32,665 nucleotides of DNA, taken from Spirulina subsalsa CS-330 (GTDB lineage: Bacteria > Cyanobacteriota > Cyanobacteriia > Cyanobacteriales > Spirulinaceae). The stretch is taken from positions 1-32,665 of the forward strand of contig NZ_JAQMTY010000019.1 of the NCBI RefSeq assembly GCF_028330765.1, read 5' to 3'. Under the pieces are notes generated by a model. The model did no database searches. It was not told the DNA's origin and was given only the letters and a program-made list of their open reading frames with translations. This document shows positions 3,677 through 7,777 of this stretch, piece by piece. Made by a program: the position numbers and the translations under genes. Within the stretch, counting starts at the first letter, position 1; each line of letters begins with the position of its first letter.

Positions 3677-4840
3677 CTAGCCCTGCATCGCTCGGATCAA
3701 CTCCTGCGCCACTTCCGGCCGCGAAAATTCCGGCGGCGGTAACTTCCCGTCCCGCAACAAGGCCCGCACCTTCGTCCCCGACAGATGCACCCGTTCTTCC
3801 GGCGCACTCGGACTCGTTTTCGTCGTTGCCATCTGACCCGTGCGGGTGCAATAGAAAGCGTGCTCAAACTTCATCGGGATAATCCCCAATTCATCCGGCT
3901 TAAACTCATCAAAAATATGCTGAGCATCATAGGTTCCGTAATAGTCCCCCACCCCCGCATGATCGCGTCCAACGATGAAATGGGTACAGCCGTAATTCTT
4001 CCGAATCAGAGCATGGAAAATCGCCTCACGGGGCCCCGCATAGCGCATCGCCGAGGGGTTAATCGCCAAAATCACCCGGTCTTGGGGGAAATAGCGATCC
4101 ATCATGATTTCATAACATCGCATCCGTACATCCGCCGGAATGTCATCGCTTTTCGTCGCTCCAACGAGGGGATGCAAAAAGAGACCATCAACGGTTTCAA
4201 GGGCGCATTTTTGGATATATTCGTGGGCGCGGTGGATCGGGTTGCGGGTTTGGAAGCCCACCACGGTTTTCCAGCCTGCCTCTTGAAACTTCGCCCGCGA
4301 CACTGCCGGATCAATCTGATACTGCGGAAAGAGCGGATGGGGATCGCGCTGCAACAACCAAATGGGCCCCGCTAGATTAATCGGCCCTTGGTCGTACACC
4401 ACTTTCACGCCGGGGTGCTTGTCTTCGTCGGTGCGATAGACGTTCACTGCTTCGTGGGTTTTGTTGTAGCGGTATTTTTGGGTCAGTTCGAGCACGCCGA
4501 CAAATCGCCCGGTGGGATCATCCAAACGCACCCAGCTTCCTTCTTTGAGGGGTTCGGCGATGTCTTCGGTGACGGAGAGGGTGACGGGGACGGCCCAGGG
4601 TAAACCGTTGGCGAGGCGCATATCGGTGACGACGGTTTCATAGTCCCCTTGCTCCATGAAGCCGATGAGGGGACTAAAGCCACCGATCGCAATCATGACT
4701 AAATCGGAAAAGGCCCGCTCATCAAGTTGAACGCGGGGCAAGCTTTCGGCCTGTTCGCGAAATTCGTTGCCTTCGGCTGCGGTGGCAATCCGATTAATTA
4801 AATGCCCGCCGTGGGCCGGAATCTGATCGTGGGTGCTCAT
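3677..4840 (-). CDS. sat: Sulfate adenylyltransferase (ATP sulfurylase)
   Basis: This enzyme catalyses the first step of assimilatory sulfate reduction: ATP plus sulfate gives adenosine 5'-phosphosulfate and pyrophosphate, in the cytoplasm. The 388-residue protein matches the single-chain bacterial type without a fused APS kinase domain. The signature motifs are intact: [11 protein letters not shown] (about 197-207), which binds ATP and sulfate; [10 protein letters not shown] (264-273); and [12 protein letters not shown] (291-302). A PUA-like N-terminal region precedes the catalytic domain. The frame extends 14 codons upstream to 4882, but ATG 4840 ([10 protein letters not shown]) is the expected start. 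It is apparently monocistronic, with a hairpin terminator at 3621-3643 and a roughly 400 bp upstream intergenic region. Confidence 0.96.
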
Positions 4841-5139
4841 AGGTGCTGGATTGTTTGGAGTTCCGGCTATTGATCCTAGCAAGAGGTGGTCTGTTCCGCA
4901 TAGTTTTCAGATTGGGCGGGGCCGGGTTGGCAGGGCGGGGCAAGGGGATGATGACTATGGGGAACGATGGGAGGAATCGGAGGGCAGGCAGGATGTCAAG
5001 GTGGTTTTACCTGAAAAACTCTATCTGTCGTCAGGGACGGTGTTGCGATCGCCTGCCCCGGACTCTTGTTTTTAAATTGACCATTGACAGACAAAACACG
5101 CATTTTGGGTTGAGAATTGCTGGTGCTGATTTTGGCAGA
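4841..5139. other. Non-coding region upstream of sat and of the AbiF RNA unit
   Basis: About 300 bp with no convincing gene. Short open frames here have no start context or family resemblance. It must hold the sat promoter, reading leftward. The ten bases ATTGACAGAC occur twice (5083-5092 and 5139-5148). The second copy forms the -35 box of the RNA promoter described next; the first lacks a credible -10 box at the right distance. Composition changes from GC-rich to AT-richer near 5070, which may mark the left edge of an acquired segment. Confidence 0.5.
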
Positions 5140-5168
5140 TTGACAGACCAAGAGCAATTAGCTACACT
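5140..5168 (+). promoter_or_regulatory. Sigma70-type promoter of the small RNA upstream of abiF
   Basis: A perfect -35 box TTGACA (5140-5145), a 17-base spacer and a -10 box TACACT (5163-5168, four of six consensus positions) predict transcription from about 5174-5176. This is among the best promoter matches I see in the window, and it points at the structured RNA and abiF. Confidence 0.6.
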
Positions 5169-5174
5169 AGACTG

Positions 5175-5234
5175 TAATAGAACCCGCCCAGGCTCTCGTA
5201 TGCAAGTACATCCTCAAAGTGGCGGGTCATTTTT
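5175..5234 (+). ncRNA. Short structured RNA with its own terminator, candidate abiF-associated RNA
   Basis: The predicted transcript of about 60 nt runs from the promoter at 5140-5168 to a T-run at 5230-5234. A 7-bp GC-rich stem, ACCCGCC (5182-5188) with GGCGGGT (5221-5227), encloses a 32-nt loop. Inside the loop, AGG (5190-5192) can pair with CCT (5212-5214), and GTA (5198-5200) with TAC (5207-5209). The outer stem followed by TTTTT is a plausible intrinsic terminator, so the RNA could be released as a discrete molecule. Abi_2/AbiF genes in many bacteria are preceded by a conserved structured RNA (the abiF RNA motif), and position and size fit. No covariance-model comparison was possible, so family membership is inference. 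Confidence 0.6.
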
Positions 5235-5246
5235 ATGATTTAAATA

Positions 5247-6128
5247 ATGTCCCAGCGTTTTACAAAGTCTCCTAAAACTGTTGCAGAACAAATTTTACTG
5301 TTGCAAAAGCGTGGGCTAATCATTCCTGATCATAACGACGCTGAACAGTCTCTTTCTCAGATTAATTACTATCGACTGAAGGCATATTTCCTGCCCTTTG
5401 AGCGAGATCATACCCATATATTCAAAGAAAATACGAGTTTTTCTGATATTTTAACCCTCTACACTTTTGATAGGAAGCTTAGACTTCATCTCTTAGATGC
5501 CCTAGAGCGTATCGAAATTTCGATCAGGCGACATTTCGCCTATGAGCTTTCTATGGATTCTGGTGCTCACGCTCATTTACAATCAGGGCTTTTTAATCGC
5601 TATTGGCAATCAAATATTGAGTATCTTAAGCAGCGAGTCCAGGAATCTACTGAAGACTTTATCGAGCATTTCAAAAACAATTATTCTGAGGATCTACCTC
5701 CTCTTTGGGTCGTTGTAGAGGTAATGTACTTTCGTACAGTATCATATTGGCTTTCATCACTCAAAAAAGATATTGTGAAGCGAAGAATTGCCAAGCACTA
5801 TCAAATTAGTCCACAAGTTTTAGTCTCTTGGGTACATTACCTTTCAGTCATCAGAAATACCTGTGCTCATCATTCGAGACTTTGGAATCGGGAAATTTTG
5901 ATCCAACCCAAACAGGTTAAACAAAAGTCTCATATCTTAAACGGTGTTCTAACGACTCAAGGACGAACTTATAATGCCTTAGTGATTATGCTTTATTTAA
6001 TGGATCAAATCGATCCCAAGCATCAGTGGGGAAAACACCTGTTGACTCTAGTTGAATCTTGTCCACAGCCTAAAGCATCAATGGGGTTTCCTGAGGGGTG
6101 GGAACGTTGTGCAATTTGGCAAAGATAA
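5247..6128 (+). CDS. AbiF/Abi_2 (AbiD) family abortive-infection protein, HEPN ribonuclease-like
   Basis: The 293-residue protein fits the Abi_2 family from end to end: N-terminal KTVAEQILLLQKRGLII, then the INYYRLKAYFLPFE block (39-52), FDRKLRLHLLDALERIEISIR (74-94), DLPPLWVVVEVMYF (149-162), and the hallmark SVIRNTCAHHSRLWNR (200-215). Arg203-Asn-x3-His208 in that block is an RX4H HEPN ribonuclease motif. Abi_2 proteins act in phage defence by abortive infection, presumably by cutting RNA, and AbiF-like HEPN proteins have been proposed as relatives of Cas13. The ATG lies only 12 bp after the T-run of the upstream RNA and has no clear Shine-Dalgarno sequence, so expression may need read-through of that terminator. 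Base composition is AT-richer than sat and lpdA, which suggests horizontal acquisition. No other gene is paired with it. Confidence 0.9.
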   Translation: MSQRFTKSPKTVAEQILLLQKRGLIIPDHNDAEQSLSQINYYRLKAYFLPFERDHTHIFKENTSFSDILTLYTFDRKLRLHLLDALERIEISIRRHFAYELSMDSGAHAHLQSGLFNRYWQSNIEYLKQRVQESTEDFIEHFKNNYSEDLPPLWVVVEVMYFRTVSYWLSSLKKDIVKRRIAKHYQISPQVLVSWVHYLSVIRNTCAHHSRLWNREILIQPKQVKQKSHILNGVLTTQGRTYNALVIMLYLMDQIDPKHQWGKHLLTLVESCPQPKASMGFPEGWERCAIWQR

Positions 6129-6154
6129 TGGTGATGTGGCTTGTGAGCAAGTAG

Positions 6155-6171
6155 GGTGGGCAGTGCCCACC
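6155..6171. repeat. Short perfect palindrome after abiF
   Basis: GGTGGGCA and TGCCCACC flank a single G (17 bp), 26 bp after the abiF stop codon. It has no T-run, so it is a weak terminator at best. It resembles the short dispersed inverted repeats common in cyanobacterial intergenic DNA, and may help isolate abiF from lpdA. Confidence 0.5.
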
Positions 6172-6352
6172 AGAGATAAGGGTTTCTCTCCTGACTTAGG
6201 CACAACCGAGGGCTGAGGGTCGTTGAAGCCCGATCGCTGACCCTGGGACAGGTTTAGGGGGCGCGAGAGTGCGATCGCTTCTCCTTTATAATTGTTGGGC
6301 TGCCGTTGCTCAACGACCGGCAGCCAGTAGACCAGCAAGTAACACAGATCCT

Positions 6353-7777
6353 ATGAGTTTCGATTATGACGTGATCATTATTGGTGCAGGGGTTGGCGGC
6401 CATGGGGCAGCCCTGCATGCGGTGCAATGTGGATTGAAAACCGCGATCGTAGAAGCCGCCGAGATGGGAGGAACCTGTGTGAATCGGGGCTGCATTCCCT
6501 CCAAGGCCTTGTTAGCCGCCTCTGGGCGCGTGCGCGAACTGCGCGATCGCCATCATCTTGAAGCCATGGGAGTCCACCTCAGCAGCGTTAGTTTTGATCG
6601 AGGCGCGATCGCGAACCACGCCACCAACCTCGTCGATAAAATTCGCGGCGACCTCACCAACAGCCTCAAACGGTTGGGAGTGGACACCTTGACCGGCTGG
6701 GGACGCATCGACGGGCCGCAAAAAGTCGGCGTGAAATCCGGCAACAGTGAAAGCTTCTTCACCGCCAAAAACATCATCATTTCCACTGGCTCCGTTCCCT
6801 TCGTTCCCCCCGGCATCGAAATCGACGGCAAAACCGTCTACACCAGCGACGACGCGGTACGCCTCGAAAGCCTGCCCCAATGGATTGCGATTATCGGTAG
6901 CGGCTACATTGGCCTGGAATTTTCCGATGTCTATTCGGCCCTGGGTTGCGAAATCACGATGATCGAAGCCCTCGATACATTGATGCCCGGTTTTGACCCC
7001 GATATCGCTAAAATCGCCGAGCGCCTCCTCCTCAAAGGCCGTGACATCGAAACCTATCAAGGCGTGCTTGCGAAGAAAATCACCCCCGGTGCGCCCGTGG
7101 TGATCGAACTCGCCGACGCGAAAACCAAAGAAACCATCGACGTGCTCGAAGTGGATGCCTGCCTCGTCGCCACGGGGCGAATTCCCGCCACGAAAAATCT
7201 AGGGCTGGAAACCGTGGGCGTGGCCACCGATCGCCGGGGTTTCATTGATGTTAACGACAAAATGGAAGTGATCCTCGACGGTCAACCCGTGCCCAACCTC
7301 TACGCGATCGGGGATGCGACGGGTAAGATGATGCTGGCCCATGCGGCTTCGGCTCAGGGGGTAGTGGCGATTGAGAATATGTGCGATCGCACCAAAACCA
7401 TCCAATACAACAGCATCCCCGCCGCTGCCTTCACCCATCCGGAAATCAGCTATGTGGGCCTCAGCGAACCCCAAGCTAAAGCTAAAGCGGACGAAGAAGG
7501 GTTCAAAATTGCCACGGCGAAAACCTATTTTAAAGGCAACTCCAAAGCCCTGGCCGAAGGGGAAACCGACGGCATCGCTAAGATCATCTATCGCCCGGAT
7601 ACGGGGGAATTGCTCGGCGTGCATATCATCGGCATCCATGCATCGGACTTGATCCAAGAGGCGGCCAATGCGATCGCTGACGGCAAACCCGTCCAAGCCT
7701 TGGCCTTCAATGTCCACACTCACCCCACCCTCTCAGAAGTCCTCGACGAAGCGTTTAAACGCGCCAAAGTCGCGTGA
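6353..7777 (+). CDS. lpdA: Dihydrolipoyl dehydrogenase (E3 of 2-oxo acid dehydrogenase complexes)
   Basis: The 474-residue flavoprotein reoxidises dihydrolipoamide with NAD+ in the pyruvate dehydrogenase and/or glycine cleavage systems. It shows an N-terminal FAD Rossmann motif ([14 protein letters not shown], 7-20), the redox-active disulfide TCVNRGC (Cys42 and Cys47), an NAD-binding Rossmann motif in the middle ([13 protein letters not shown]), the second FAD motif ([18 protein letters not shown]), and the C-terminal active-site His/Glu pair in HTHPTLSE (about His457 and Glu462). The frame is open 28 codons further upstream, but ATG 6353 ([11 protein letters not shown]) is the family start. 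trpC follows after a repeat-containing gap of about 105 bp. Confidence 0.95.

What the first reader, a model, noticed from the sequence alone, without database searches (positions are those of the whole stretch)
5140..6128. AbiF HEPN protein gene preceded by a stand-alone structured RNA with its own promoter and terminator
Seen in sequence: TTGACA, 17 bp, TACACT at 5140-5168; a 7-bp GC-rich stem (5182-5188 with 5221-5227) enclosing 32 nt with smaller pairings; then TTTTT at 5230-5234; then an Abi_2 gene from 5247 whose protein carries RNTCAH (203-208). Established knowledge: Abi_2 proteins provide phage abortive infection, HEPN RX4H motifs cut RNA, and a conserved RNA motif upstream of abiF genes has been reported. 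Inference: the roughly 60-nt RNA could be an antitoxin, guide-like or activating partner of the HEPN protein, and the terminator just before the start codon could make abiF expression depend on read-through.
Basis: partly seen in the sequence, partly recalled or inferred. Interest (0 to 1): 0.8.

Follow-up and report, generated by a model that had tools for sequence, protein, structure and literature searches.

The report
AbiF toxin gene with RNA antitoxin
The window carries a bacterial anti-phage toxin gene preceded by a small folded RNA of the kind that restrains such toxins, and relatives of that RNA turn up alone, without the toxin, in many phages, as if phages used it to disarm the defence.

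Summary
A covariance model built from 21 homologous RNAs, window left out, finds window 5176-5231 at 52.6 bits, E 5e-15; genome-wide one other place scores below E 1. Seven of ten pairs show two-sided changes. It is an abiF-type RNA of a subclass that Rfam misses (RF03085: 13.9 bits, cut-off 37): second stem AGG/CCU and an extra hairpin, mostly GNRA-capped. The gene is an AbiD/F HEPN protein with RX4H. Best mechanism, carried over from published relatives and untested here: the RNA binds and silences the HEPN dimer, and its closing stem attenuates transcription. The kind is known. The unexpected lead: 140 of 147 model-confirmed viral contigs with such an RNA hold no Abi_2 gene in the record held, nor do 11 of 11 named phage records. 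Of 22 phage RNAs with a tRNA in the fetched locus, 11 lie within 25 nt of one. I read these as RNA decoys against AbiF; ten searches of an open-licence library showed no such reading. No decoy activity was tested.

The parts
5140..5168 (+). promoter-like site, TTGACA - 17 - TACACT
   Evidence: 10 of 12 matches; a similar site just before the RNA in chosen homologues
5176..5231 (+). abiF-type RNA, match of the held-out covariance model (transcript expected about 5175 to 5234, inferred)
   Evidence: R1, 52.6 bits, E 5e-15; RF03085 13.9 bits, below cut-off 37
5182..5188 (+). P1, 5' strand
   Evidence: sequence; covariation of P1 on A2
5190..5192 (+). P2, 5' strand AGG (pairs with CCU 5212-5214)
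   Evidence: sequence and model alignment; P2 covariation
5198..5209 (+). P3 hairpin GUAU-GCAA-GUAC (GNRA loop)
   Evidence: fold; class statistics; GUAU-GCAA-AUAC in the near-copy L059
5212..5214 (+). P2, 3' strand CCU
5215..5220 (+). 3' bulge CAAAGU
   Evidence: CAAA shared with the RF03085 consensus and with homologues
5221..5227 (+). P1, 3' strand
5230..5234 (+). T run after P1, candidate terminator tail
   Evidence: sequence; not called by the terminator scan
5247..6128 (+). abiF (AbiD/F, Abi_2) gene, 293 aa
   Evidence: Pfam 9.9e-56, PADLOC AbiD 6.8e-74, PDB 8vz6 E 3.5e-46
5853..5870 (+). codons of the HEPN RX4H motif RNTCAH
   Evidence: R and H in 48 of 48 aligned homologues

Best explanation
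A two-part abortive-infection module. A promoter makes a small RNA of about 60 nt whose closing stem P1 and T-rich tail stop most transcripts before abiF; read-through gives a little AbiF mRNA. AbiF forms a HEPN ribonuclease dimer, and the RNA (P1, P2, CAAA bulge, GNRA-capped P3) binds it and keeps it inactive. Infection or stress disturbs the balance, and the freed enzyme cuts RNA and halts the cell. Shown here: promoter-like site, RNA fold by covariation, homology of RNA and protein, intact RX4H. Inferred from published relatives: termination, binding, toxicity, neutralisation. The trigger is a guess.
For: Held-out RNA model match; covariation; R1 match before 52 of 59 AbiF loci, 20 of them model rows, 32 of the 39 others, and in 0 of 16 weak Abi_2-like loci; RX4H in 48 of 48; homology to 8vz6, named in PMC12737573 as the PbAbiF-ncRNA complex; RCd22 of C. 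difficile binds and neutralises AbiF and most transcription stops before abiF (PMC12373285); RNA class follows the protein tree, 12 changes against 24.9 shuffled.
Against: No expression or binding data for this organism. [quoted passage not shown] The U tract is interrupted (CATTTTT), and no terminator was called. Fold energy is ordinary. Seven of 59 AbiF loci have no R1 match (L002, L032, L056, L058, L070, L075, L076).
Confidence: 0.8

Rival explanations
1. The RNA acts only in cis, as a leader attenuator of abiF, and does not bind the protein.
For: P1 followed by a T run 12 nt before the start codon. In C. difficile loss of the leader raises abiF expression 17-fold (PMC12373285).
Against: The conserved inner parts (P2, CUCUC or CUA, CAAA) are not needed for termination, yet they are kept; RCd22 works in trans by direct binding (PMC12373285); relatives of the RNA stand alone in phages.
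Confidence: 0.12
2. The RNA guides or activates AbiF in a Cas13-like way.
For: AbiD/F groups with Cas13an HEPN domains (PMC12165695, passages).
Against: All of the model lies in stems, short loops and a bulge, with no long free segment; the published role of the RNA is inhibition.
Confidence: 0.04
3. The hairpin is a chance stem or a plain terminator with no tie to AbiF.
For: Ordinary fold energy and chance-level promoter count.
Against: Held-out model E 5e-15; covariation.
Confidence: 0.01
4. On the phage copies: they are not decoys but leftovers of lost abiF modules, phage terminators or processing hairpins, or an RNA with some other partner.
For: No host AbiF was shown for any of these phages; viral records are mostly fragments; the closing stem could serve as a terminator; bacterial genomes also hold copies without abiF (9 of 22 places, five of them weak).
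Against: Unsearched outer P1 pairs keep pairing through two-sided changes; the inner motif is kept in 11 unrelated or distantly related phage records without Abi_2; no other partner gene is shared widely (largest shared neighbour family 9 of 77 loci).
Confidence: 0.35

Closest known systems
abiF RNA, Rfam RF03085
   Same: P1, P2, CUCUC and CAAA line up end to end; four homologues before cyanobacterial abiF genes do pass the Rfam cut-off
   Different: The window scores 13.9 bits against 37; longer apical part with P3, P2 AGG/CCU instead of AGC/GCU
RCd22-AbiF of Clostridioides difficile (PMC12373285)
   Same: Promoter, RNA, terminator, then an AbiF gene with R-N-x-C-A-H motif
   Different: RCd22 has two motifs and a separate terminator; the window has one motif whose own closing stem precedes the T run
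PbAbiF-AbiFr, PDB 8vz6 (PMC12737573 passages)
   Same: Homologous protein over residues 8-292; one RNA per protein monomer is reported, which fits a single copy
   Different: Distant protein (E 3.5e-46); AbiFr's sequence was not examined here
pseudo-ToxI of phage PhiTE (PMC3475682, abstract and outline)
   Same: A phage-borne copy of an RNA antitoxin that defeats an abortive-infection toxin: the model for my reading of the orphan phage RNAs
   Different: ToxIN is an unrelated toxin family, and there the effect was shown by experiment
abiF RNA of cyanophage S-CREM1 (PMC9964418, passages)
   Same: abiF RNA in a lytic phage, 51.6 bits to RF03085 in the paper; no Abi_2 in the record
   Different: In the passages seen, the authors do not read it as an answer to AbiF

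Membership tests
abiF RNA (Rfam RF03085) | score at or above the curated cut-off of 37 bits | tested here: not met
   13.9 bits; nothing at gathering. So it is not filed as an RF03085 member, but as a homologous subclass outside that model's reach
abiF RNA (Rfam RF03085) | homology to RNAs that pass RF03085: same P1-P2 fold | tested here: met
   R1 holds L022, L054, L055, L060, which pass RF03085, and finds the window at E 5e-15
abiF RNA (Rfam RF03085) | lies just before an Abi_2 gene | tested here: met
   RNA ends 15 nt before the start codon; Abi_2
AbiD/F (Abi_2) protein | Abi_2 domain over the Pfam cut-off | tested here: met
   189.4 bits, cut-off 25.6
AbiD/F (Abi_2) protein | HEPN RX4H motif | tested here: met
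   RNTCAH 203-208
Type III toxin-antitoxin | RNA antitoxin binds and neutralises a toxic protein | not testable with these tools
   needs experiment; shown for C. difficile AbiF in PMC12373285
Type III toxin-antitoxin | antitoxin repeats before the toxin gene | tested here: not met
   one R1 match in the window up to E 10. 'Works like' a type III pair is kept; membership in the classical ToxIN sense is not claimed
Cas13 / RNA-guided HEPN effector | guide segment or CRISPR array | not tested
   no array search was run; the RNA model shows no long free segment

The most novel reading that the evidence does not exclude
Phages of many lineages carry stand-alone abiF RNAs as decoys against AbiF, an RNA counter-defence parallel to pseudo-ToxI. 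140 of 147 model-confirmed viral contigs (77 of 77 from two scans, 70 of the 80 fetched out of 93 hits of a third) have the RNA and no Abi_2 gene in the record held; so do 11 of 11 named phage records, on hosts of Mycobacterium, Acinetobacter, Aeromonas, Arthrobacter, Salicola, Synechococcus, Bradyrhizobium and a Paracoccaceae strain. One viral copy matches the RNA of an Acetobacter plasmid's abiF at 62 of 64 bases. Where the RNA abuts a phage tRNA, tRNA processing would release it.
Probability: 0.6. Interest if true: 0.85.

Novelty: new variant of a known kind. Interest (0 to 1): 0.6.

Why it matters
For the window: it extends the AbiF RNA-toxin pair, the proposed root of Cas13, to a cyanobacterial RNA subclass that the curated model mostly does not reach (4 of 20 cyanobacterial abiF loci pass), so its spread has been undercounted. 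For the field: if the orphan phage RNAs are decoys, phages of very different kinds keep a small RNA against AbiF, and what AbiF does during infection becomes testable with natural inhibitor RNAs. Their place beside phage tRNAs would also fit a toxin that cuts tRNA (inference; nothing here shows it).

Tried and rejected
Rfam on the window: nothing at gathering, nothing up to E 1 in 4800-6400. Single-sequence folding: not informative. Lactococcal phage sk1, named in a reference title (seen) as the source of DNA protecting phage 712 from AbiF: no R1 match up to E 5 in its 28 kb, so an abiF RNA that this model can see does not explain that protection. Relatives of the protein in viral contigs by peptide patterns: none. 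Empty site beside the ATP-sulfurylase gene: abiF lies there in the window and G444, 2 of 14 family genomes; in L206 the contig ends inside the sulfurylase gene; the lpd gene was in none of the fetched stretches, so no empty site was defined. Conserved partner gene beside the phage RNAs: the largest shared neighbour families are in 9 of 77 loci, mostly the same related contigs. Structure prediction was not run.

Told against my own reading. The viral scans ask for the motif, so model confirmation of their hits is not independent. The independent parts are: two scrambled patterns with 0 hits (the third pattern had no such control, and 10 of its 80 fetched hits were not confirmed); the unsearched outer P1 pairs (slid by +2 they still give 9 two-sided cells); Rfam's own model on named phages (over cut-off in 7 of 10 loci L183-L192, and in 0 of 5 others given: L050, L105, L113, L136, L144); Abi_2 searches of whole records. 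Many viral records are fragments and some are near-copies (69 distinct of 82 rows; one row, L158, is AbiF-linked). The window's own RNA has no viral match at E 1e-6 in BLAST. tRNA nearness: 12 of 79 located RNAs within 500 nt against 4.2 by random placement (S-CREM1 was not located by those patterns), but L183 and L184 were fetched as phage hits beforehand, 68 of 90 RNAs had no tRNA in the fetched locus at all; in scan 3, 2 of 80 lie within 25 nt against 0.15 expected. P2 class labels came from rough patterns: 9 of 48 rows fell in 'other', some by a miss of the pattern, and near-copies help the clustering. Whole-genome model searches score only part of the first-look candidates (150 of 1630, 15 per genome).

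Full report
Observation. Every coordinate in the finding is correct. By themselves the promoter and hairpin are at chance level. The RNA has P1 5182-5188/5221-5227, P2 5190-5192/5212-5214, a P3 hairpin 5198-5209 (GUAU GCAA GUAC) and the bulge CAAAGU 5215-5220.

The gene. The 293-aa protein is Abi_2 by Pfam (9.9e-56), AbiD by PADLOC (6.8e-74) and matches PDB 8vz6, 'Abi family protein', over residues 8-292 (E 3.5e-46). A figure legend in PMC12737573 (passages) names 8VZ6 as PbAbiF-ncRNA. R and H of RX4H are present in 48 of 48 aligned homologues. NCBIfam gave nothing at E 0.001.

The RNA. Rfam at gathering finds nothing in the window. Asked permissively over 121 bases, RF03085 aligns end to end at 13.9 bits, cut-off 37, E 4.3 over all families, with a longer apical part than the consensus. 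I read the bases before abiF in homologues from cyanobacterial genomes, Bacteroidota and plasmids (15 of the 440 records with a match were fetched) and saw the same element in most. From 21 rows, without the window and its near-copy L059, I built model R1. On these rows all 210 cells are paired, 7 of 10 pairs show two-sided changes, 29 such cells against 5.3 in shuffles; slid structures score far lower. RNAalifold gives the same ten pairs. R1 finds the window at 52.6 bits, E 5e-15. Genome-wide only the window and C51 score below E 1 (150 of 1630 candidates scored).

Linkage to AbiF. R1 at E 0.01 or less lies before abiF in 23 of 27 cyanobacterial loci with Abi_2 at E 1e-20 or less, 17 of 17 Bacteroidota loci searched (18 fetched; L017 starts inside the gene) and 12 of 15 plasmid loci. 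That is 52 of 59; 20 of these are rows of the model, and of the other 39, 32 match, several being near-copies of model rows. Misses: L002, L032, L056 (E 0.016), L058, L070, L075, L076. Of 16 loci with only weak Abi_2-like matches, 0 have it. L042, a fragment of a true abiF gene and a model row, is counted apart. By eye L002, the second abiF of this genome, has a like layout with P2 CAC/GUG.

Subclass. Among 41 distinct RNAs with P2 AGG/CCU, 40 have a P3 of at least 3 bp and 29 a GNRA loop; among 41 with AGC/GCU these are 12 and 1. The window is of the first kind. RNA class follows the protein tree: 12 changes against 24.9 shuffled; the 7 AGG rows lie in one part of it, with one AGC row among them. 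At Rfam's gathering score 4 of 20 cyanobacterial loci given are seen. This is why I call it a variant of a known kind.

Mechanism. PMC12373285 (abstract, first part of the discussion and passages) reports that in C. difficile RCd22 lies before abiF, shares its promoter, mostly ends at a terminator, binds AbiF and neutralises it in cis and in trans. PMC12737573 (passages) states that AbiF cuts single-stranded RNA and is held by AbiFr. PMC12165695 (passages) places AbiD/F with the Cas13an HEPN domains and calls RF03085 an RNA of unknown function. The antitoxin-plus-attenuator model for the window follows by homology; it was not tested. The paper that I recall as the source of RF03085 was not held.

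Context. abiF lies beside the ATP-sulfurylase gene in the window and in a same-genus genome (G444; 96.9% protein identity), and was not found in the stretches fetched around that gene in the other 12 family genomes (one of these stretches is cut by a contig end). It behaves as an accessory gene.

Copies without abiF in bacteria. The own genome has a strong RNA near the end of contig C51 (53.6 bits), with no abiF in the bases left there. In 386 cyanobacterial genomes R1 hits 22 places in 19 genomes (15 candidates scored per genome). Compared, 13 lie beside Abi_2 and 9 do not; none of the 9 loci shows an AbiF frame, but five of the nine are weak (24.5-30.5 bits).

Viral contigs. PMC9964418 (passages) had reported an abiF RNA in cyanophage S-CREM1. 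I therefore scanned: AGG/CCU pattern 42 hits, AGC/GCU pattern 35, CGC/GCG pattern 93, of which 80 were fetched. Scrambled forms of the first two gave 0 and 0. R1 confirms 77 of 77 and 70 of 80. Abi_2 anywhere in the record held: 0 of 42 contigs plus S-CREM1, 1 of 35, 2 of 40, 4 of 40; the six of scan 3 are all among the 70. So 140 of 147 confirmed contigs lack it. As a contrast, 13 of 22 R1 places in cyanobacterial genomes lie beside Abi_2. The contigs may be fragments, so absence is firm only for complete phages.

Named phages. BLAST with two phage-type RNAs gave 29 and 73 records, many weak. I fetched ten loci besides S-CREM1. R1 finds the RNA in all eleven, weakest in Mimi (21.8 bits, partial). 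Rfam's model passes its cut-off in 7 of the ten. Abi_2: 0 of 11 records. Among them are Acj61 (Straboviridae) and T7-Ah, CRP-143 and Pasto (Autographiviridae), by their records. Of the anonymous contigs, L116 and L125 were looked at: both carry portal and terminase genes, with recombination or replication genes.

Signs of selection in phage copies. The two outer P1 pairs are not fixed by the patterns. On A4 (82 rows, 69 distinct, one of them AbiF-linked) they hold in 126 of 127 cells with 20 two-sided changes against 3.1 shuffled. Faith1 and DyoEdafos have CAUUGCC/GGCAAUG as P1, and Thibault another paired P1. The RNA before abiF on an Acetobacter plasmid (L069) and the viral L113 copy agree in 62 of 64 bases; with L116 it is 61 of 63. 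The window's own RNA had no viral match there.

tRNA neighbours. Of 90 phage RNAs examined, 22 have a tRNA in the fetched locus; 11 of these lie within 25 nt of one, and 21 have the nearest tRNA on the same strand. Six end -1 to 6 nt before a tRNA (S-CREM1, S-SZBM1, Faith1, DyoEdafos twice, L134); four begin 9-15 nt after one (L151, L160, L166, Arthrobacter phage Mimi). RNase P and tRNA 3' processing would free the RNA: inference.

Reading. The best account I have of the phage copies is a decoy that occupies AbiF, as pseudo-ToxI does for ToxN (PMC3475682, abstract and outline). Ten searches of the open library (listings, with passages of the papers named) showed no paper that says so. That library lacks most subscription papers, so this is a limited statement.

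Noticed in passing
L050 147-198, - strand (own genome, contig C51): A strong abiF-type RNA of the AGG/CCU kind about 150 bases from a contig end, without an abiF gene in the bases left; the gene may lie beyond the end, or be lost.
   Followed up: partly
L002 (own genome, contig C73): A second abiF gene, 33% identical to the window's, with a hairpin of the same layout by eye (P2 CAC/GUG) that R1 does not find.
   Followed up: partly
L077 1268-1319 and 1442-1487; the same in L057: Two abiF-type RNA matches (55.5 and 20.2 bits) before one abiF gene on a Picosynechococcus plasmid, recalling the two motifs of RCd22.
   Followed up: no
L183 2991-3041 and 4344-4379; L249 9276-9323 and 9403-9448; L108 295-349 and 3712-3750: Phage loci with two abiF-type RNAs each, the second weaker (24.5-27.7 bits).
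   Followed up: no
L070, L075, L076, L058 upstream of abiF: AbiF loci with a hairpin just before the gene that R1 does not find; perhaps further RNA subclasses.
   Followed up: no
L151, L156, L160, L165, L166, L178 (viral contigs): RNAs whose P1 is cut to the inner pairs; L151, L160, L165 and L166 have phage tRNAs on the same strand within 500 nt. Perhaps the terminator part is lost inside a tRNA transcript.
   Followed up: no
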